Positions 19,733 to 37,418 of a DNA stretch of 37,418 nt are shown in pieces. The stretch is taken from positions 1 to 37,418 of the forward strand of contig JACDGU010000007.1 in NCBI GenBank assembly GCA_013821475.1. Direction: 5' to 3'. Below the pieces are notes generated by a model. That model saw nothing but the letters and a program-made list of their open reading frames with translations, was not told where the DNA came from and searched no databases. The DNA comes from Solirubrobacterales bacterium (GTDB taxonomy: Bacteria > Actinomycetota > Thermoleophilia > Solirubrobacterales > 70-9). The position numbers were made by a program, and so were the translations under genes. The stretch's first letter is position 1, and every line of letters begins with the position of its first letter.

Positions 19733-19893
19733 TCGATGTTGCGCCTGACAAATGCACATGGTTTTCGTTGAAGCGGGAAGGGGTAAGGCTCCTCGATCGG
19801 GTCGAGGAGAAGTGGGCGCTGCGTTGCACGGCTCTCTGAGCTCCAGGGCCACGCAGGCCGGCACAGTCGCCGGTTGCCCTAACGAGAGGAGAA

Positions 19894-20280
19894 ATGCAGA
19901 TGTCCGCCGTGTTGATTGTCGTAATCGTGATCGTGGTTATGATTCTGGTCGGGGTCGCGGCCGTTGCCGGCCGCCGGGCAGCAGCCCGCCGCCGGCTTGA
20001 GAAGGAACGCCTCGCGGAACAGGCCGTCGCCCACCGCGGCGAGGCCGAGGTCCGGGCGGCGAAGGCAACCGACCTCTCCGAGCAGGAGCAGGCAAAGCGG
20101 GCCGAGGCGACTGAGGCGGCCGCCGAGGCCGAGCGCCATGCGCGCCTGGCCGAAGAGCAGCGCAGCCGTGCCGATCAGCTCGCCGAGGAGTCGGATGACA
20201 CGAGTGCGCGGGTGGAGCGCGAGCGGGAGCGTGCTCGCCGCCACGGCGCGAAGGCCGAAGAGATAGAGGAGGAGCTGTAA
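19894..20280 (+). CDS. Single-span membrane protein with a cytoplasmic coiled coil
   Basis: A 128-aa protein with one strong N-terminal membrane helix (about residues 5-27), then an Arg-rich anchor and a long heptad-like Glu/Ala/Arg helix to the end (EAEVRAAKATDL, AEATEAAAEAERHARLAE). GAGGAG lies 4 bases before the ATG. The long charged helix suggests self-association or scaffolding at the membrane. It belongs to no functional family that I recognise. It heads a run of three small membrane-protein genes (this, 20376 and 20463). Confidence 0.75.
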   Translation: MQMSAVLIVVIVIVVMILVGVAAVAGRRAAARRRLEKERLAEQAVAHRGEAEVRAAKATDLSEQEQAKRAEATEAAAEAERHARLAEEQRSRADQLAEESDDTSARVERERERARRHGAKAEEIEEEL

Positions 20281-28854: not shown

Positions 28855-29403
28855 TCAGTTCCGTCCCGATGACGGGAGCCCTAGGGCGAGTTGCGTCGAG
28901 CTTGGCTGCCCCTCGATGGTCGCCAGCAGCCTGACCGGGCCGCGGCCGATCACACGGATCCCCCCCGGCCAGGCAGTGCGAGGCAGGTCCCGGCAAGGCT
29001 GGAACTCGATTTCCGCATAGCCAGGAGCGCCACGGAATGAGGCCATGGGGCGCCCTCCGCCGGCGGCGACGTGACCGTAGTAGAGGAACACGCGATTACG
29101 AAGCGCGAGCGGAACGCTGAGAACGACGTAGCGATGGCCGGCAACGAGGACGGGCATCCTTGCGGCGAGCTGGCCGTTCCTGATTTCCCCCATGCTCGCC
29201 AGCGGCTGACGGGGGATGCGCATCGGCCCGGCGACCACGGAGCCGGGACGCCCCCCCGCGAGCCCGACCACGGACGGAGAAGATGATCGGCCGCAGGCGG
29301 CCACTGATGCTTCCGTTGCTTCCACCGGTTCGGAGGCGCCGCCGACCGCGAGAACGATTGCGACGATCGCGGCGATCGCCACGATCAGGCCCTTTTTCAT
29401 CAC
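28855..29403 (-). CDS. Exported or membrane-anchored hypothetical protein
   Basis: A 182-aa protein with an N-terminal hydrophobic signal or anchor (KKGLIVAIAAIVAIVLAVGG). A mature domain follows with a Cys pair (AACGRSSS and FQPCRDLP), RYVVLSVPLALRNRVFLYYG and a beta-rich tail. No family recognised. It starts 12 bases after the 94-aa gene on the same strand, so the two probably form an operon. Confidence 0.6.
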   Translation of the reverse strand: MMKKGLIVAIAAIVAIVLAVGGASEPVEATEASVAACGRSSSPSVVGLAGGRPGSVVAGPMRIPRQPLASMGEIRNGQLAARMPVLVAGHRYVVLSVPLALRNRVFLYYGHVAAGGGRPMASFRGAPGYAEIEFQPCRDLPRTAWPGGIRVIGRGPVRLLATIEGQPSSTQLALGLPSSGRN

Positions 29404-29415
29404 CAGCGTGGACCG

Positions 29416-29700
29416 TCAGCCGGCCGGCTGCGGCCAGGGAATCGCGTCGGCGGCATCCTGATCCGACGGCTCCGGCCATTCGCGGATCTCCCGCAGCTCG
29501 GTCTCGGCGGCGTCGCTGGTCCGAAAAGGTTCGTTTTCGTGGATCGCGACGCCGTTGGCTGGGACGATTGCAAACCCCTCGACGGGCTCTTCGGTGAACG
29601 CCCCCACCTGCTCGCTCCAGTCGACCTCCGAGACCGGCACGACCCGCCCCTCCCGCTGGAGGATCCTCACCTGCGCTGCGTCATAGACATATCTTGGCAT
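29416..29700 (-). CDS. Small acidic hypothetical protein
   Basis: A 94-aa protein behind a strong ribosome site (AAGGAGG, 5-6 bases before the ATG). It begins PRYVYDAAQVRILQREGRV, has a middle WSEQVGAF and AIVPANGVAIHENEPF, and an acidic C-terminus with several WP pairs. It has no signal peptide or membrane span. Probably translated; function unknown. Confidence 0.6.
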   Translation of the reverse strand: MPRYVYDAAQVRILQREGRVVPVSEVDWSEQVGAFTEEPVEGFAIVPANGVAIHENEPFRTSDAAETELREIREWPEPSDQDAADAIPWPQPAG

Positions 29701-29836
29701 TGCGTCCTCCTTCTTAGTGAATTCTCAGCTTCAGTTAAGGCCAGCCAAAGGTTCGCTCGCCACCCTGGATGGGATTCCCCCTCGAACCAAGATCGAGAGC
29801 TCGTCCCCCTACCGAATCCCTGCGGAGGTACCGAAC

Positions 29837-30064
29837 ATGTCCGTTCCCCTGATAATCGCGCTCAATGTAGGCGTGGCGGCGCTCCTGGTGCTGCTCCTGA
29901 CCGCGCTGATGCTGCTTCCCAAGCGCCTCCACCCTCACCGCCATCCCCATCTGATGGTCCGCAACGAGACGCCGACCCCCGCCTGCCCGCATCCGCGTGA
30001 GCGTAGTCAGCACCCTCAACGAGCTGTCCACGACCGCGGTGGCCGGGTGGTCACCGAATCCTAA
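29837..30064 (+). CDS. Small single-span membrane protein (family copy 1)
   Basis: A 75-aa protein counted from the ATG at 29837, which has GGAGG 8 bases upstream. It has one membrane helix (about 4-26), then the boundary motif LMLLPKRLHPH and a His/Arg-rich hydrophilic tail. The next gene (30084) shows the same architecture: MS at the start, an N in the helix, and LMLxPxRLH at the membrane edge. The two are thus a tandem duplication. A third relative is at 36133-36317. Confidence 0.65.
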   Translation: MSVPLIIALNVGVAALLVLLLTALMLLPKRLHPHRHPHLMVRNETPTPACPHPRERSQHPQRAVHDRGGRVVTES

Positions 30065-30083
30065 AATTGGGTAGCCTGACGCC

Positions 30084-30308
30084 ATGTCCATTTCAGCGAT
30101 CATCCTCATGAACCTCTTTGCCGCGGCGATTCTGGTGGCGATACTTGCAACCCTGATGCTGGTCCCCGCCCGCCTCCACCGTCCCTTCGCGGCAGGACAC
30201 ACGCCGCGCCAGAAGCTGGCTCTGCGCAAGCTGCTCCATGCGCGAGGCAGTCAGCAACCGTGGCCGCAGCGCTCGAGCCAGCGCGGTCTGCGGCCGATCC
30301 CCGACTAG
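30084..30308 (+). CDS. Small single-span membrane protein (family copy 2)
   Basis: A 74-aa protein with one membrane helix (about 4-27), then LMLVPARLHRPFAAGHTPRQ and a basic tail. The segment after the helix is almost identical in kind to copy 3 (LAPARLRRPFADGHTRRQ, minus strand at 36133-36317). The start has no clear ribosome site, and the gene follows copy 1 by 19 bases. It is convergent with SCO1. Function unknown. Confidence 0.65.
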   Translation: MSISAIILMNLFAAAILVAILATLMLVPARLHRPFAAGHTPRQKLALRKLLHARGSQQPWPQRSSQRGLRPIPD

Positions 30309-30329
30309 CGTTCGCGCAGTCGCCACTGG

Positions 30330-30953
30330 TCATTCGGCTTCTGAAGCCAGCGTCTTCAAGTCGGTGGCGACCCAGGTCGGCAGGAATGGATAGACCATCC
30401 CGGCGCGCTCGAAGCCCTTGGAATCGACGAGGTAGAGCGCGTCGCTGTGTTCGATGTCCCCGGTCGTACGCCGGACCTGGATGTGATATCTGCGCCAGAC
30501 CGGTTCGAGCTGCGTCTTAGTTCCAAGGAGCCAGCGCCAGCGGAAGCCACTGAGGCCGAACCGCTTGATCGCCCGGTGAGCCGAGCCCGGCGTGTCTTCC
30601 CAAGGGTTGACGCTGACGGCGATCACGAGCGGCAGATCCGACCGTGGCACCGTGCGCAGCCCGGCCGCCAGGGCGTGACCGACGAGCGGGCACTGCTGGT
30701 GGCACTGGGAGTCCATGAACACGATGATCACCGGTTCGCCACGCACCGACGCGAGCTTGAAGCGCTGGGATTGCGAATCGAGCAGGGAGATTTCCGGCGC
30801 TCGCCGCAATCCCTGCGGCCAGACCGCCTGACCGCGCACCTCCGCGGTCGACAAAGCAACGGCACCCGAGGCCCCGGAAGTGTCGCCGGCGAAGCTGTGA
30901 ACTCCGAAACCAAGCAGAACGCCGACGACCGCGGCCGCCGCAACCGCGGCCAC
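30330..30953 (-). CDS. SCO1/SenC-type copper chaperone for cytochrome oxidase
   Basis: A 207-aa membrane-anchored thioredoxin-fold protein with an N-terminal hydrophobic anchor (about 2-20). The copper-binding CxxxC is in DSQCHQQCPLVG (Cys84, Cys88) and the conserved His in DIEHSDALYLVD (His169). SCO proteins load copper into the CuA site of subunit II. It is the last gene of the oxidase locus. The start is uncertain: the frame stays open upstream through GSRRR, whose positive charges suit the cytoplasmic side of the anchor, so translation may begin before the GTG at 30953. Confidence 0.85.
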   Translation of the reverse strand: MAAVAAAAVVGVLLGFGVHSFAGDTSGASGAVALSTAEVRGQAVWPQGLRRAPEISLLDSQSQRFKLASVRGEPVIIVFMDSQCHQQCPLVGHALAAGLRTVPRSDLPLVIAVSVNPWEDTPGSAHRAIKRFGLSGFRWRWLLGTKTQLEPVWRRYHIQVRRTTGDIEHSDALYLVDSKGFERAGMVYPFLPTWVATDLKTLASEAE

Positions 30954-31011
30954 GACCCGGCGGCGGCTTCCCGGTGACCCGCTCAGGGCGCGCTCCCCTG
31001 CGCCGTCCCGG

Positions 31012-31146
31012 TCACTGGTGCCCCCTGCTCGCCACCGCGTAGCAGAAGAGAACCGCGAGCACTACAACGAGCGGGAAGACGGTCGAGAAGACGCCCGAGA
31101 AGGTCGTCCAGCCGGTATCCGCGTAGAGCGGCATGAGCAGGTTCAT
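31012..31146 (-). CDS. 44-aa membrane peptide in the oxidase operon
   Basis: The ATG at 31146 follows the ctaG stop by one base (TGAGATG) and has GAGGAG about 9 bases upstream. The product is one membrane helix (FSTVFPLVVVLAVLFCYAVA) with a short N-terminal segment NLLMPLYADTGWTT and tail SRGHQ. It is too short for routine gene finding. Size, one-span topology and position suggest a small accessory subunit or assembly peptide of the oxidase, comparable in kind to CcoQ or subunit IV, but no homology is claimed. Confidence 0.6.
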   Translation of the reverse strand: MNLLMPLYADTGWTTFSGVFSTVFPLVVVLAVLFCYAVASRGHQ

Positions 31147-31147
31147 C

Positions 31148-32005
31148 TCATCCAACTCCTCTCGAAAGGGGCTTGGGCTCGACGAACGGGCGACTGCGCG
31201 AGCCGCTCGGCTCGAGCCAGAGGTAGGCGACCGCGACGATCGCCACCGAGTAGGCGATCGACCCCGGCACCCACATCACGCCAGCGGCAAACTGCTGATC
31301 GGTAAACGCCGAGATGTGCCCGAGACGGCTCGCCTCATCGGCATAGGCCGAGTAGATCGGGGACCCAGCCAGGGCCAGGACAATCGCCAGCACCCAGCCG
31401 ACGACCATCGTCGATCCGAGGTAGGCCAGCTTGCCGATCTCGCTGAGGGTCGAGCGCCAGGGCGGCGAGTAGACGACCCTGGTCCAGAACAGGAGCGCGG
31501 TGGCGAAGAAGATGAGGTGCTCGAACGCATGGACGAACTCCAAGCGCAGAGCGGCGTCGTAGAGAACCGGCAGGTGCCAGGCGCAGAAGGTGAGGTTGAA
31601 GAGGAGCCAGGAGGCGAGGCCGCCGCCGCAGAAGCTCGCGACCCCTCGCAGCCAGCCCCAGCGCGGGGCGGCGATGGCGCCGGCGACAGAACGGCGATAG
31701 GCGAGCGGAAAGCCCCGCCACATCCGGTTCCAGGGCCGGGCCAGCGCCAGCAGTGGCGCCGCCACGCCGATCAGGAGGATGTGCTGGACCATGTGGACCC
31801 AGAAGAGTTCGTCGGCCAGGCGGTCGACAGGCGAGTCGAGGGCAACCAGGATCGCGAGCAGGCCGGCGACGAAGGCGGCGGTGCGCCAGGACCCACCGGC
31901 CGGCCGCCGGTGGCGGCCACCGAGCCAGTAGAGCAGTGCCGCCCCCAGCACCCAGAGCAGGGCCGGGCCGCCGGTCCAGTCGAGGGGAGTGGTCAGTGCG
32001 GCCAA
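31148..32005 (-). CDS. ctaG: Cytochrome c oxidase assembly factor CtaG (caa3 type)
   Basis: A 285-aa integral membrane protein of the caa3_CtaG family, with about seven spans. Family motifs: LDSPVDRLADELFWVHMVQH (about 57-76), the intramembrane AWHLPVLYDA, HAFEHLIFFATALLFW, and a C-terminal TDQQFAAGVMWVPG. CtaG is needed for assembly of the copper site (CuB) in subunit I in Bacillus-type oxidases. The start lies 3 bases after the subunit III stop, and the stop is one base before the 44-aa peptide gene. Confidence 0.9.
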   Translation of the reverse strand: MAALTTPLDWTGGPALLWVLGAALLYWLGGRHRRPAGGSWRTAAFVAGLLAILVALDSPVDRLADELFWVHMVQHILLIGVAAPLLALARPWNRMWRGFPLAYRRSVAGAIAAPRWGWLRGVASFCGGGLASWLLFNLTFCAWHLPVLYDAALRLEFVHAFEHLIFFATALLFWTRVVYSPPWRSTLSEIGKLAYLGSTMVVGWVLAIVLALAGSPIYSAYADEASRLGHISAFTDQQFAAGVMWVPGSIAYSVAIVAVAYLWLEPSGSRSRPFVEPKPLSRGVG

Positions 32006-32008
32006 GGC

Positions 32009-32608
32009 TCAGAGGAGGTAGAGGATGATCCAAGCGAGGACGCCGATCGCCGCCAGCAGGCCCCAGTACATCGCGCCCGGCACGAAGCCCTCGGGAACCG
32101 CCGACCCCTCGCGCCCGCGATTACGCAGACCGGCGGCGAAGGCGATCTCGACCCTGTAGAGCGCCAGCAGGGTGGCGACGACATAGAGGATGGTCCAGCC
32201 GAAGAAGACGCTCGCGTAGCCACCGCTCTGGGGCCCGAAGGGAATGTGTGCGTACTCGACCGCCTGGGCGGCGCAGGCGAAGAGCCCCAGGACCAGGGCG
32301 ATACCGGAAGGGACGACCCAACCCCCGCGCCCCTGTTTGGAGACGCGCGCCGCGTAACCGAACGCGAGAGCGCTGAGGACGAGGGCGGCGGCGATCGCGA
32401 TCCCGTAGCCGCTCGGCGGTTCGACCCCGGCCGGCCGCCAGAGGCCGTTGCTGTCGAGCGAGCGCAGGTAGAAGTAGGCGAAGACAAAGCCGAAGAAGAA
32501 CATCACCGTGGCGCCGCCGACCAGCCCGAAGCCGATCCGGTCGATGCGCTCGTGCAGCTCCGGGGTCTCGGCGTAGGACTCGGGTGCTTGGCTGGTCACG
32601 TCGGGCAT
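32009..32608 (-). CDS. ctaE: Cytochrome c oxidase subunit III
   Basis: A 199-aa protein with five membrane helices, the short form of subunit III. Landmarks: GFGLVGGATVMFFFGFVFAY (first helix), CAAQAVEYAH (conserved Glu and His), FFGWTILYVVATLLALYRV, and a final helix at the C-terminus. It supports proton uptake and stability of subunit I. It lies 7 bases downstream of ctaD and 3 bases upstream of ctaG. Confidence 0.88.
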   Translation of the reverse strand: MPDVTSQAPESYAETPELHERIDRIGFGLVGGATVMFFFGFVFAYFYLRSLDSNGLWRPAGVEPPSGYGIAIAAALVLSALAFGYAARVSKQGRGGWVVPSGIALVLGLFACAAQAVEYAHIPFGPQSGGYASVFFGWTILYVVATLLALYRVEIAFAAGLRNRGREGSAVPEGFVPGAMYWGLLAAIGVLAWIILYLL

Positions 32609-32615
32609 CTCGTTC

Positions 32616-34499
32616 CTATCCGGGCGCCGGCGCCTCGGCCGGCGGTGCAGGTGGCAGCGCCACCGGCGGGACCCCGTAGTCGTAGGGATCGGTATTGATC
32701 ACCGGTGGGCGCTCGAAATTTTCGACCGGCACCGGAGTCGGCAGCTGCCACTCCAGCGAGTGCGAGTCCCAGGGGTTGGCCGGGGCTGGGATCCGCTTGA
32801 TCACCAGCGAATAGACGACGTTGAAGAGAAAGATCAACATCGAGGCGCCGAGCACGAAAGCGGAGACCGAGACCCAGTCGTTGAGCGGCTGCAGGTGGCT
32901 GGGGTAGGTCACCACACGTCGCGCCATCCCCATCAGGCCCAGCGCGAAGAGCGGCGCGAAGGTCGAGTTGAAGGCGATGAACATCGTCCAGAAGTGGATC
33001 TTGCCGAGCTTTTCGTTCAGCGCCACGCCGAACATCTTCGGCACCCAGTAGTAGATGCCGGCAAAGAAAGCGAAGACCAGGCCGCCCATGATCGTGTAGT
33101 GGAAGTGGGCCATGACGAAGAAGCTGCCGTGGGTGGCGACGTCGCTGGGCACGTCGGAGAGGAAGACTCCCGAGGCCCCGCCAATGAAGAAGTTGAAGAA
33201 CCAGGCGAGGCAGAACAGCATCGGCACCGTGTAGCGGATCTTCGCCCGCCAGAGGGTTCCCATTCCGGCGAGGAAGACGAGCCCGGTCGGGATCGAGATC
33301 GCCTCAGTCGAGAACATGTAGAACGGTCGCAGCGAGGAGTTGAGGCCGCTGACGAAGAGATGGTGCTGCCAGACGAAGAAGCTGAGCAGGGCGACGCCGA
33401 GGATCCCGGCGACGGCGGTCCGGTACCCCCACAACGGCTTGCGGGCAAATACGGGCAGGATCTCGAGGATGATCCCGAATCCGGGGAGGGCGAGGACGTA
33501 GACCTCGGGGTGACCGAAGAACCAGAACAGGTTCTGGAACAGGTAGGGGCTGCCGCCACCGCTAGAGAGGAAAAATGAGGTCTGGACACTGCGGTCGAAG
33601 GCGACCATCAGGAGCGCTGCGATCAGCACCGGGGCCGCCAAGACCATCAGGATGCCGGTGCTGATCGCGCCCCAGCAAAAGATCGGCAGGCGCCCCCAGG
33701 TCAGGCCGGGGGCGCGCATGGTGATGGTGGTGACGATCATGTTGATCCCCAGCAGGGTCATCGAGAGCCCGACCAGCCCGAAAAAGAAGATGTAGGAGTC
33801 GAAACCGAAGTTGGCCTCGTCGTTGAGCGGCGCGTAGCCCGTCCATCCGGTCGGGAAGCCACCGAAGAAGAGGGTGGTCATCAGGATCGCCCCGGCGGCC
33901 ATCAGCAGCCAGAAGGTGAGCGACTCGATCCGCGGGAAGGCCATCCGCCGGGCGCCGATCATCAGCGGCAGGAAGTAGTTGGCGAACGGGCCGAGGATGC
34001 CCGAGGTCATGATCCCCATCATCATCGTGCCGTGGAGGCCGACCAGGGTCAGGTAATTACCGGCGCCGAAGAGCTGCGGCGAGGGTCGCAGCAGCTCGGC
34101 CCGGATCAGCATCGCGTTCATCCCGGCGATGAAGAAGAAGAATCCGATCCCGATCAGGTACTGGATGCCGACGACCTTGTGATCGGTGCAGAGGGTGAAG
34201 TAACGGCCGACTCCGCCCTCCTCCTTTTCCGCCTGGGTCGCGGGACCGCCGAGCATCCGTGAGAACGGGTAGTTGAGGAAGCCGAGCCCGGCCACGAAGC
34301 CGATCACCGCGAACAGATAGCCGAGCAGCAAGGCGACGTCGTTCTGGTTGGTGTCGGCGAAGTATTCGAGGCTCGGCGCGTGGATCTGGTGCCCCAGCCA
34401 CCATCCGAAGTAGAAGCCGACGATCCCCAGCAGGATCCCGCTGAGGAGGTTAAAACCGATCAGCCGCCGCCAGAGCGGTTTCACGACCGCTTCGCTCAT
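32616..34499 (-). CDS. ctaD: Cytochrome c oxidase subunit I
   Basis: The 627-aa catalytic subunit. All metal ligands are present: heme a ligand His156 in GLHGTMMMG; CuB ligands His330 with cross-linked Tyr334 in FFGHPEVYVLALPGFG and His379-His380 in VWQHHLF; and heme a3 and heme a ligands His465 and His467 in AHFHYTIMGG. The GHPE Glu marks an A-type oxidase that reduces O2 to water and pumps protons. An N-terminal extension with two extra hydrophobic spans (about 12-35 and 55-78) precedes the conserved core at about residue 100. The start overlaps the subunit II gene by 4 bases. Confidence 0.96.
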   Translation of the reverse strand: MSEAVVKPLWRRLIGFNLLSGILLGIVGFYFGWWLGHQIHAPSLEYFADTNQNDVALLLGYLFAVIGFVAGLGFLNYPFSRMLGGPATQAEKEEGGVGRYFTLCTDHKVVGIQYLIGIGFFFFIAGMNAMLIRAELLRPSPQLFGAGNYLTLVGLHGTMMMGIMTSGILGPFANYFLPLMIGARRMAFPRIESLTFWLLMAAGAILMTTLFFGGFPTGWTGYAPLNDEANFGFDSYIFFFGLVGLSMTLLGINMIVTTITMRAPGLTWGRLPIFCWGAISTGILMVLAAPVLIAALLMVAFDRSVQTSFFLSSGGGSPYLFQNLFWFFGHPEVYVLALPGFGIILEILPVFARKPLWGYRTAVAGILGVALLSFFVWQHHLFVSGLNSSLRPFYMFSTEAISIPTGLVFLAGMGTLWRAKIRYTVPMLFCLAWFFNFFIGGASGVFLSDVPSDVATHGSFFVMAHFHYTIMGGLVFAFFAGIYYWVPKMFGVALNEKLGKIHFWTMFIAFNSTFAPLFALGLMGMARRVVTYPSHLQPLNDWVSVSAFVLGASMLIFLFNVVYSLVIKRIPAPANPWDSHSLEWQLPTPVPVENFERPPVINTDPYDYGVPPVALPPAPPAEAPAPG

Positions 34500-35323
34500 C
34501 CAGCCCTCCTCTCAGGTTCGGGGAAGTAGTGCGTCGAGTATTTTGGAAGGGCCTTGGTCGCCGGGGCGAAGACCCGTTTCTGTTCTTCGATCCATTCGCC
34601 GAAGGCGCTTTCGCTCACCACCTGGCCGGTGTCGAACATGTAGCCGTGCCAGAGGCCGCAGAGCTCCGAGCAGCGGAGTTCGAACGACATTTCCTGGCGT
34701 GGTTCGACGAAGGCGACGTTGTCGACGCCCGGGTTGGCGTCGGCCTTGACCCCCAGCCGCGGCGCCCAGAAGGAATGGATGACGTCGAGCGAGGTGACGT
34801 GGAATTCGACCTTTTTGCCGACGGGCAGCTCGAGGTGTGCGGTCTCGACGCCGCCGTAAGTCGGATAGCGATAGGTGAACTCCCACTGCTGGGCGATCAC
34901 CTGGACCGGTAGCACATCGCCGGAGAGCTTGAACGCCGGTTCCGGACCCTGGCCGCCGCCAGCCCCGGCATCGGCCAGCTCGACGGTCCCGAAGGTGGCG
35001 AGGAAGAGGACAATGACCGTGGTCCCGGCCAGCCACGGAATGTGGACGGCGCGATTGTCGCGGGTCGCCACCCCTTCCTCGGACGGCTCCCCCTGGCGCC
35101 TGAAGACGATCATCGCGTAGGCGAAGTAGACGATGATCGCGACCGCGATCGGGGTCACGATCCCGAGCAGCAAAGTGTCGTCGAAGAGCTGGTTGGCGGC
35201 GGCGCTGGTCGCGTCTCCGGGCGGCAGCGTCGGGGCGATCACCGCCACGACGATCGGGGTCAGGATCGCGCTCAACACGAACCAGGCGATCGCGATCCGG
35301 CGGATGTGGTTCGGCTCGTTCAA
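34496..35323 (-). CDS. ctaC: Cytochrome c oxidase subunit II
   Basis: A 275-aa protein with N-terminal membrane helices (about 10-30, 50-74 and 97-115) and an outside cupredoxin domain. The CuA site is complete: His183 in VIHSFWAP, and Cys218, Cys222, His226 and Met229 in CSELCGLWHGYMF. No cytochrome c domain is fused, so electrons come from a separate donor. It starts one base after the stop of the upstream cupredoxin-like gene and overlaps ctaD by 4 bases (ATGA), so the genes are tightly coupled. Confidence 0.94.
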   Translation of the reverse strand: MNEPNHIRRIAIAWFVLSAILTPIVVAVIAPTLPPGDATSAAANQLFDDTLLLGIVTPIAVAIIVYFAYAMIVFRRQGEPSEEGVATRDNRAVHIPWLAGTTVIVLFLATFGTVELADAGAGGGQGPEPAFKLSGDVLPVQVIAQQWEFTYRYPTYGGVETAHLELPVGKKVEFHVTSLDVIHSFWAPRLGVKADANPGVDNVAFVEPRQEMSFELRCSELCGLWHGYMFDTGQVVSESAFGEWIEEQKRVFAPATKALPKYSTHYFPEPERRAG

Positions 35324-35324
35324 C

Positions 35325-35987
35325 TCAGACCACTTCGAGGAAGCCGTCCATGTAGCCGATGGTCTGCATCGCGCCGCCGAATCCAGCGAGGAAGCCGGCA
35401 GCGCAGGGCACGAAGCACTGCCAGCGGTAGCGGCCGGGCTTGCCGGTGCGGATCGTGAAGGTGATCGTTTCGTGCGCCTGCTTCAACGAGCACGGACCTT
35501 CTTCGCATTGATTTTCGGCTTCTTCGGGCACGCCTTTGAGCGGTACGATCAGCCCGATCTGGGGCACCGCGAAGGTGTGGGAGGCTTCTTCGGGAGGGAT
35601 CGTCTTCATCGACTTGCCGTCGACCAGCATCGTGCCCCCGACGGTTCCCTGCACCTGCGAGAGAAAGGGGTTGCGCAGACCGCTGTCGCCGTCGAACTGG
35701 TAGACGGTGACGTGGACCAGCGCGTGGGCCGGGACCTTGTAGATCGTGCTGTGGATCCACCTGCCTTCGGCGTCCTTGATCAGGTAGGAGACCCAGGGCG
35801 CTTCTTCCCCCTGGGTTCCGACCGCCGCCTCGGTCTTGAGGGTCAGCTGGGCTTCGTGAGCTGCGGTGGGGATAGCCGCAACCGTCGGCGGCTCGGTCAC
35901 CAGGTTCGCGACGTAGAGCGTGATCAGCCCCGCGGCGACAACCACCACGATGCCGACAACCGAGATCCTCGCCCACAGCGAACCCAT
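35325..35987 (-). CDS. Membrane-anchored cupredoxin-like protein before subunit II
   Basis: A 220-aa protein counted from the ATG at 35987, which has AAGGG 6-7 bases upstream; a GTG at 35993 is less well placed. One N-terminal membrane anchor is followed by a beta-rich domain. Numbered from 35993, it holds His139 in SHTFAVPQIG, an extra Cys pair NQCEEGPC, and a C-terminal RWQCFVPCAAGF with Cys193 and Cys197 placed as in CuA. The position of the CuA His is Phe201, so a normal CuA centre is unlikely. It may carry a different copper site or act as a chaperone or extra subunit. First gene after the operon promoter. Confidence 0.7.
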   Translation of the reverse strand: MGSLWARISVVGIVVVVAAGLITLYVANLVTEPPTVAAIPTAAHEAQLTLKTEAAVGTQGEEAPWVSYLIKDAEGRWIHSTIYKVPAHALVHVTVYQFDGDSGLRNPFLSQVQGTVGGTMLVDGKSMKTIPPEEASHTFAVPQIGLIVPLKGVPEEAENQCEEGPCSLKQAHETITFTIRTGKPGRYRWQCFVPCAAGFLAGFGGAMQTIGYMDGFLEVV

Positions 35988-36046
35988 AAGCACCCTTCAT
36001 GCAACCCAGCATGTTAGTCAGCGTCCTTAGACGAGACGCCAGCGAC

Positions 36047-36076
36047 AACCTAGACCAGGAAGGAGTCGACCGTCAA
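36047..36076 (-). promoter_or_regulatory. Probable promoter of the cytochrome oxidase operon
   Basis: On the minus strand TTGACG (36076-36071) and TAGGTT (36052-36047) are 18 bases apart, a strong actinobacterial vegetative pair. Transcription would begin near 36040, about 50 bases before the cupredoxin-like ATG. The small genes further upstream are thus outside this unit. Confidence 0.55.
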
Positions 36077-36132
36077 CAATTCTTTTGCCAACTTCACCGC
36101 GCCGAGCGGCAGGCGGGGATTTCTCGGCGGCC

Positions 36133-36317
36133 CTATGGGCGGCGACGTCGCTCCACACGAGCGCGTCGCCGCTCGCGCAGGGCAGCCCACTGTCGCCGCG
36201 TGTGGCCGTCGGCAAACGGTCGGCGCAGCCGGGCGGGAGCGAGCATTACGACTGCCAAGACCGCGACGAGAATCAGCCCGGCGATGATGCAGACGTCACT
36301 AGCGTCGTGGTGGACAT
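36133..36317 (-). pseudogene. Small single-span membrane protein (family copy 3), frameshifted
   Basis: An ATG at 36317 behind GAGGA opens MSTTTLVTSASS and stops after 14 codons. A neighbouring frame continues as CIIAGLILVAVLAVVMLAP, then ARLRRPFADGHTRRQWAALR, ending in an Arg-rich tail with TAG at 36135-36133. The membrane helix and the PARLxRPFAxGHTxRQ segment match copy 2 at 30084. A one-base sequencing or assembly error would restore a protein of about 60 aa, so this may be a live gene. Confidence 0.55.
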
Positions 36318-36363
36318 CGTTCCTCTATACCCGCTGCGAGCACCTGCAACCTGCCCCGGGAGC

Positions 36364-36501
36364 CTATTCTCGGCGGGCGTGCCGACCCCGGAACAGCAGA
36401 ACCTGGCAGACGATCACGCCGACGACGAGTGCGATAGAGAGGCCAGCGACGATTCGTCGCAGCGTTCCAATCAAGATGGCAAGCAGCATCGCCTCGGTCA
36501 T
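36364..36501 (-). CDS. 45-aa membrane peptide
   Basis: An ATG at 36501 with GGGAAG upstream gives TEAMLLAILIGTLRRIVAGL, then SIALVVGVIVCQVLLF and tail RGRHARRE. It is one or two short hydrophobic segments with a positive end. It precedes copy 3 of the small membrane family by 46 bases on the same strand. A frame that ends exactly over its start (TGA overlapping ATG) is open upstream. Function unknown. Confidence 0.45.
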   Translation of the reverse strand: MTEAMLLAILIGTLRRIVAGLSIALVVGVIVCQVLLFRGRHARRE

Positions 36502-36748
36502 GTGACTTCCCGTTCAGCGTACAGTCGACCTCGACTCCTGCTTTGGATCTCGAAAACCATCTCCATAGCCCTTCTGCCCAGGGCAAGCTCGGTGATGGGT
36601 GTGGGCCCGAGCTGGTTCGGCGCCGTGCTTACATCTCCGACCTCGGCGGCCTCGGGTTGTGAACTCGACTCGCAGGATCGCGCCGGTCGGTGGTCGAGGA
36701 AGAGTCAGTAGACGAGGGGCCGAACGCATTGCGGACACATCTCCGAGC
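36502..36748. other. Intergenic stretch, possible gene tail
   Basis: The minus strand has one open frame with coherent composition (LGPTPITELALGRRAMEM, then VFEIQSRSRGRLYAE) whose TGA overlaps the ATG at 36501. It has no clear start and no recognised family. Nothing else is visible. Confidence 0.3.

Positions 36749-37418
<670 letters not shown>

What the first reader, a model, noticed from the sequence alone, without database searches (positions are those of the whole stretch)
29837..36317. A family of small single-span membrane proteins on both sides of the oxidase operon
Copies 1 and 2 (29837 and 30084) lie just beyond SCO1, and copy 3 (36317-36133, one frameshift) lies just before the operon promoter. 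Copies 2 and 3 share a helix followed by PARLxRPFAxGHTxRQ. Paralogues flanking a respiratory locus suggest either an oxidase-associated function or duplication that carried the locus. I do not recognise this family.
Basis: partly seen in the sequence, partly recalled or inferred. Interest (0 to 1): 0.58.

Follow-up and report, generated by a model that had tools for sequence, protein, structure and literature searches.

The report
Tiny membrane proteins flanking an oxidase
Three related tiny membrane proteins flank a respiratory enzyme gene cluster in a soil-type bacterium; the family is real, new to the databases and carries its own promoter, but it looks more like a fast-evolving accessory (perhaps stress-related) membrane protein than a part of the enzyme, and a different, overlooked tiny protein inside the cluster is the better candidate for that.

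Summary
Copies 1 (29837-30064 +), 2 (30084-30308 +) and 3 (36317-36133 -, one-base frame offset near its start) are paralogous single-span proteins. They are the only significant copies in the genome, have no Pfam or NCBIfam family, and the copy-2 type is under purifying selection. The narrow family is known only from this genome and two same-genus MAGs; in both, one copy sits tail-to-tail with SCO1 of the same oxidase operon. Copy 3 is unique to the window. The other 54 of 57 operon-bearing class genomes have no recognisable copy. Distant look-alikes lie mostly elsewhere, often beside histidine-kinase genes. Copies 2, 3 and the G004 orthologue have GGGTA(G/T) exactly at -15, a rare, SigB-like site. 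So the oxidase link is conserved position in one lineage, not shown function; 'duplication that carried the locus' is not supported.

The parts
29837..30064 (+). copy 1, 75 aa, single-span; helix shared with copy 2, C-terminal tail not conserved
30084..30308 (+). copy 2, 74 aa, single-span with basic PARLHRPFAAGHTPRQ tail; convergent with SCO1
   Evidence: AF2: helix 3-31, pLDDT 88, 94 and 73 in the first three blocks of ten
36133..36317 (-). copy 3, start codon and conserved part in different frames (one frame offset); ATG 36317, homologous frame 36136-36288
30069..30074 (+). GGGTAG at -15 of copy 2, promoter-like (-10 of SigB type, or TAGCCT of a leaderless SigA promoter)
36327..36332 (-). 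GGGTAT at -15 of copy 3
29713..29739 (+). three CTCAG-like half-sites at 11-bp spacing upstream of copy 1 (also upstream of the divergent ORF 29416-29700 -)
   Evidence: score reached by 1.2% of background windows (pair); third half-site by eye
36047..36076 (-). TTGACG-N18-TAGGTT, operon promoter-like, also present in G004; read by eye
   Evidence: upstream sequences; not found by the consensus scan
30330..30953 (-). SCO1/SenC
   Evidence: Pfam PF02630 E 1.2e-11
31148..32005 (-). CtaG-like
   Evidence: TIGR02737 E 3.2e-18, below its curated cut-off
32009..32608 (-). CoxIII-like
   Evidence: NF050119 E 1.2e-6, below cut-off
32616..34499 (-). CoxI (CtaD-like)
   Evidence: TIGR02891 E 1.3e-164, below cut-off
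34496..35323 (-). CoxII with COX2 periplasmic domain
   Evidence: PF00116 E 1.3e-15
35325..35993 (-). first operon gene, membrane-anchored protein of no Pfam family, conserved with the operon

Best explanation
The copies are a young, fast-evolving family of tiny bitopic membrane proteins (short uncharged N-terminus outside, one helix, Arg/His-rich tail in the cytoplasm by the positive-inside rule). The core member is one gene in the slot tail-to-tail with SCO1. In this genome it has paralogues on both sides of the locus, of which copy 3 is decaying (or mis-assembled). They are transcribed from their own promoter (GGGTA at -15, probably SigB-type general-stress or near-leaderless), not as part of the oxidase operon. 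I think they most likely act as stress-induced membrane proteins of the YohP kind, altering the membrane or a neighbouring membrane complex, and are not oxidase subunits. Shown: family, orthology, purifying selection, position, the shared promoter-like site. Inferred: topology, SigB use, stress role.
For: Only three significant genome copies, all here; two orthologues, each single and in the same convergent slot. Core dN/dS about 0.2-0.3. GGGTA at exactly -15 in copies 2, 3 and G004, and at -35 and -89 in G003, conserved in alignment; 0 of 1377 candidate starts in 244 kb of own-genome DNA have it at -15. GGGTA-N10-ATG occurs 91 times against 24 for the reversed pattern in the three genomes. 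The genome has a SigBFG sigma factor above the curated cut-off (256 against 234 bits). SigB-type promoters of Streptomyces have GGG nearly invariant, A fifth, and a loose GNNT -35 (PMC8346170, passages). YohP is a stress-linked 27-aa membrane protein (PMC12719787, abstract). Operon genes evolve far slower (CoxI 87-91% identity, against copy 2 at 53-58%).
Against: The SigB reading is weak: GTTT-N12-16-GGGTA is only 40 against 25 for the control. Of 30 GGGTA-N10-ATG sites read, 11 had a coding-like frame and several of these looked like housekeeping genes (recognised by eye). The site also fits a leaderless TANNNT promoter. Copy 1 lacks GGGTA. There are no expression data. Strict co-location with one oxidase operon in three genomes is not explained by a general stress role.
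Confidence: 0.45

Rival explanations
1. Oxidase accessory protein: copy 2 is a small lineage-specific subunit or assembly factor of this aa3-type oxidase, as CcoM is of cbb3 oxidase, and copies 1 and 3 are paralogues in the same service.
For: 3 of 3 genomes with the narrow family have it beside this operon, and the other 9 same-genus genomes have neither. Two look-alikes in another genus (L132, L135) sit in the same convergent slot beyond the operon. Beyond copy 2, G004 shares one further neighbour with the window and no such hit was found in G003, so in G003 the conserved block ends with this gene.
Against: Not recognisable in 54 of 57 operon-bearing class genomes or in the nearest outgroup G035; separate strand and promoter-like site; a better in-operon candidate exists. 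The three genomes may share the pair by descent, so they count as one event.
Confidence: 0.25
2. Sensor-linked small protein: the family belongs to a wider set of tiny membrane proteins controlled by two-component systems, which act back on a kinase as MgrB does on PhoQ.
For: Look-alikes lie next to HK/RR genes in L215, L217, L221, L222, L224, L226 and L228 (Pfam run on L215, L221 and L226 only). Of 16 such upstream regions, 8 have CTCAG pairs scoring >=9 at 11-bp spacing, against 0-3 at the other 13 spacings tried. Copy 1 has such a pair (1.2% of background).
Against: Copies 2, 3, G003 and G004 have no such pair, and I recognised no kinase gene among the window ORFs (read by eye, not scanned). 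In the tree the window-genus copies form a group apart from the look-alikes (97/98). Membership of the g63 look-alikes is weak (E 2.7e-6 to 3.6e-4) and the profile was built from chosen members.
Confidence: 0.15
3. Passive hitch-hiking: dispensable small genes that happen to lie at a mobile oxidase cassette.
For: Same-genus genomes without the operon lack the gene too; tails diverge freely; copy 3 is out of frame.
Against: Purifying selection on the core and a conserved promoter-like site.
Confidence: 0.12
4. Segmental duplication carried the oxidase locus between two copies.
For: Copies lie on both sides.
Against: No long repeats between the flanks; no upstream copy in relatives; divergence near saturation.
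Confidence: 0.03

Closest known systems
CcoM, 36-aa subunit of cbb3 oxidase (Pseudomonas stutzeri; PMC10433244, passages)
   Same: tiny protein associated with a terminal oxidase
   Different: known physical subunit; here no such evidence, gene not in the operon, no family match in Pfam, NCBIfam or PDB sequence searches
YohP, 27-aa stress-linked membrane protein of E. coli (PMC12719787, abstract; PMC7549839, start of abstract in listing)
   Same: single span, no enzymatic domain, stress-type expression proposed
   Different: no sequence relation claimed; expression here only inferred from a promoter-like site
MgrB, 47-aa feedback inhibitor of PhoQ (PMC8404706, start of abstract in listing)
   Same: small membrane protein controlled by a two-component system, as the wider look-alikes may be
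   Different: window copies 2 and 3 have no such regulator repeat and I recognised no kinase gene beside them (by eye)
FixS (Pfam PF03597), for the in-operon small protein only
   Same: short protein of an oxidase cluster; 3 of 14 members give weak matches, best E 0.0078
   Different: weak E-values only; the window's own member gives no match; different oxidase type

Membership tests
Narrow family (copies 1-3) | N-terminal helix followed by P-x-R-L and a basic GHTxRQ tail | tested here: met
   Copies 2, 3, G003 and G004 met; copy 1 has the helix and PKRL but not the tail
Known small oxidase subunit (Pfam/NCBIfam) | profile match | tested here: not met
   No Pfam match at E<=1 for copies 1-3; NCBIfam only chance-level hits
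Known small oxidase subunit (Pfam/NCBIfam) | encoded within the oxidase operon | tested here: not met
   Copies 1 and 2 on the opposite strand; copy 3 upstream of the operon's own promoter-like sequence (by eye)
Known small oxidase subunit (Pfam/NCBIfam) | physical presence in the complex | not testable with these tools
   needs purification
SigB-controlled gene | GGGTA-type -10 at a suitable distance | tested here: met
   copies 2, 3, G003, G004 yes; copy 1 no
SigB-controlled gene | GTTT-like -35 at N12-14 | tested here: inconclusive
   loose GNNT-like matches in c3, G003, G004 by eye; c2 poor
MgrB-like feedback protein | response-regulator site and partner kinase beside the gene | tested here: not met
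   for copies 2 and 3: no repeat pair, no kinase recognised in the window ORF list (by eye). Copy 1 has a repeat pair but no adjacent kinase was recognised
FixS (in-operon small protein) | profile match | tested here: inconclusive
   3 of 14 members match, best E 0.0078; window member none

The most novel reading that the evidence does not exclude
A stress-switched, lineage-specific membrane microprotein family that tunes or silences one particular aa3-type oxidase, made from a promoter convergent with the oxidase operon, so that its transcription also opposes SCO1 and the operon's 3' end.
Probability: 0.1. Interest if true: 0.6.

Novelty: new member of a known kind. Interest (0 to 1): 0.33.

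Why it matters
It adds an undescribed small-protein family at a respiratory locus, with a testable promoter signature, and shows how position alone can make a small gene look 'oxidase-associated'. The companion result matters more: a nearly universal but unnamed 40-50 aa single-span protein encoded inside this oxidase operon in the class, which structural work on these oxidases should look for.

Tried and rejected
Pfam, NCBIfam, PHROGs and PDB-sequence searches for the copies gave nothing convincing; the best PDB rows are ribosomal protein uS19 at E 0.05-0.1, the best PHROGs row is an Rz-like spanin at 0.0099 for one of five members. A neighbouring 45-aa ORF (36364-36501 -) had no relative in 12 same-genus genomes below E 0.12. 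AF2 of the first operon gene failed (mean pLDDT 39), so no fold search was made. AF2 of copy 2 gave only a confident helix 3-31 (mean pLDDT 68). My recollection that CTCAG repeats resemble a mycobacterial MprA box was not borne out by the one paper read (C. glutamicum motif TKTTAAGAAM, PMC12113857 passages). A leaderless SigA (TANNNT at -12) reading was considered and not excluded; 9 of 1377 candidate starts have it. The promoter/terminator scan found no more sites than shuffles. Literature: no paper on this family or operon was found in the searches; the library is partial. One search required only two of its three terms, and none of its 10 listed papers mentions Solirubrobacterales.

Limits: the class search scored at most 14 candidates per genome, so distant members may be missed. 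Gene calls in the Python scripts were a GC3 heuristic. Co-occurrence counts are not phylogenetically independent. E-values of the wider profile A6 are inflated for the loci used to build it.
Full report
What is there. The window is contig C161 of a 252-contig MAG, about 90% complete. A seven-gene operon runs on the minus strand from 35993 to 30330: an unnamed membrane-anchored protein, CoxII, CoxI, CoxIII, CtaG, a 47-aa ORF and SCO1. Copies 1 and 2 lie on the plus strand beyond SCO1, 19 nt apart, copy 2 ending 21 nt from the SCO1 stop. Copy 3 lies on the minus strand upstream of the operon, with its start codon and its conserved part in different frames.

Is it a family beyond chance? Yes. In the own genome the copy-2 query finds itself, copy 3 (E 3.5e-11) and copy 1 (E 7.5e-4), then nothing below 0.1. 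Copy 1 scores 79 against the copy-2 type, against a best of 27.7 among 6673 start-anchored frames in 206,636 bases of other own-genome sequence. For the three pairs among copy 2, G003 and G004, core dN is 0.25, 0.27 and 0.23 and dS 1.04, 0.96 and 1.11. AF2 gives one confident helix, residues 3-31. With an uncharged start and a basic tail the N-out/C-in topology is inferred, not tested.

Where else is it? Of 61 genomes searched (own and 60 relatives), 7 had a match at E<=0.01, and apart from the window only G003 and G004, same genus, were strong. Of 399 class genomes, 26 had a match at E<=0.01, but only these three genomes were below 1e-20; the rest were at 3e-4 or worse. A scan of contigs of 84,980 species gave 122 pattern matches and 2 relatives, the same two genomes: a Solirubrobacterales MAG (Chersky) and an Actinomycetota MAG (SZAS-11). 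In both, one copy lies tail-to-tail with SCO1 and none lies upstream of the operon. Conservation beyond copy 2 is limited: G004 keeps one further neighbour (the 28855-29403 protein), and no such hit was found in G003.

Link with the oxidase. A CoxII of this type (E<1e-80) occurs in 5 of 61 genomes: G000, G003, G004, G035 and G053. Within the 12-genome genus, the three with this CoxII are the three with the narrow family. The first operon gene, specific to this operon, occurs in 57 of 399 class genomes. I fetched stretches for the 56 others and for G035, which with the window makes 58 loci. No narrow-family member was found there outside G000, G003 and G004. So the narrow family follows the operon only inside one genus, which may be one evolutionary event.

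The wider set. The profile's weak hits led to look-alikes with a similar start (MSxSxxIxLNxxx...M..PxRLxPH) in another genus. Two (L132, L135) are in the same convergent slot beyond the operon. A short profile built from eight sequences (A6) found matches in 24 of 399 genomes at E<=0.01. In genus g34 nine copies at E<=1.5e-6 were found in five genomes; two are beside the oxidase and seven are elsewhere. Several look-alikes sit next to histidine kinase and response regulator genes (Pfam confirmed for L215, L221 and L226). Upstream of 16 such genes, pairs of CTCAG at 11-bp spacing score >=9 in 8, against 0-3 at other spacings, as expected of OmpR-type regulator sites (established knowledge). Copy 1 has a pair of this kind; copies 2, 3, G003 and G004 do not. 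In a tree the five window-genus sequences form one group against the look-alikes (97/98), with most inner branches unresolved and copy 1 on a long branch. The look-alikes were partly chosen by looking near the oxidase, so their rate of co-location is biased.

Promoters. GGGTAG or GGGTAT stands at exactly -15 in copies 2, 3 and the G004 orthologue, and GGGTAG at -35 and -89 in G003 (alignment). None of 1377 candidate starts of 180 heuristically called genes has GGGTA at -15, and the 5-mer occurs 148 times on both strands of 244,054 bases. The genome has a SigBFG factor over the curated cut-off. Some GTTT-N-GGGTA sites precede genes that I recognise by eye as stress-type (an RsbW-like ATPase, a DUF4235-like and a DUF892-like protein; names from recall), which favours SigB. 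Against it, GTTT-N12-16-GGGTA is only 40 against 25 for the control, and several of the 11 coding-like genes behind GGGTA-N10-ATG (of 30 sites read) look like housekeeping genes. The operon itself has TTGACG-N18-TAGGTT in G000 and G004 (read by eye). Whatever the sigma factor, the small genes appear to have their own promoter.

Duplication idea. The repeat search of 29000-37300 shows copy 1 against copy 2 (61 nt, 72%) but no long repeat between the two flanks. With near-saturated synonymous sites and single copies in relatives, a duplication that carried the operon is not supported.

The 47-aa ORF at 31012-31155 (-), between CtaG and SCO1, belongs to a single-span protein present in the same operon class-wide. 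With 13 seeds (all among the loci counted), a profile finds it in 50 of the 52 loci that cover the slot at E<=2e-3; one more (L131) is at 0.015 and one (L160, the most divergent operon) has none. Six of the 58 loci (L109, L114, L115, L128, L133, L151) were set aside because the contig ends before the slot. All listed hits are on the operon strand and none lies in the 206 kb of own-genome control. No Pfam, NCBIfam or PDB family fits (three of 14 members touch FixS at best E 0.0078). This is the better candidate for a small oxidase partner.

Verdict. Observation confirmed; interpretation partly supported. An undescribed lineage-specific small membrane protein family, of a known general kind, with conserved position and probably its own stress-type promoter; no evidence that it is part of the oxidase.

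Noticed in passing
window 31012-31155 (-): In-operon 40-50 aa single-span protein conserved in 50 of 52 class loci covering the slot, with no database family; strong candidate for an unnamed small oxidase subunit or assembly factor.
   Followed up: yes
window 35325-35993 (-): First operon gene: membrane-anchored protein with invariant H and C-x3-C residues, no Pfam family, found in 57 of 399 class genomes; possibly cupredoxin-like by eye, structure prediction failed.
   Followed up: partly
L214-L228 upstream regions; window 29713-29739: CTCAG direct repeats at 11-bp spacing upstream of tiny membrane-protein genes, often beside histidine kinase/response regulator genes.
   Followed up: partly
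L215 and L217: RR - HK - tiny membrane protein, followed in L215 by a trypsin-like protease, a ferric-reductase-like protein and ApbE: a conserved-looking cluster with a tiny protein between kinase and protease.
   Followed up: partly
window 36364-36501 (-): 45-aa single-span ORF upstream of copy 3 with no relative in 12 same-genus genomes below E 0.12; coding status unknown.
   Followed up: partly
window 19761-20280 (+): GTTT-N16-GGGTA site 108 nt upstream of a 128-aa membrane-anchored protein.
   Followed up: no
window 37330-37418: Poly-G run at the contig end, probably an assembly artefact.
   Followed up: no
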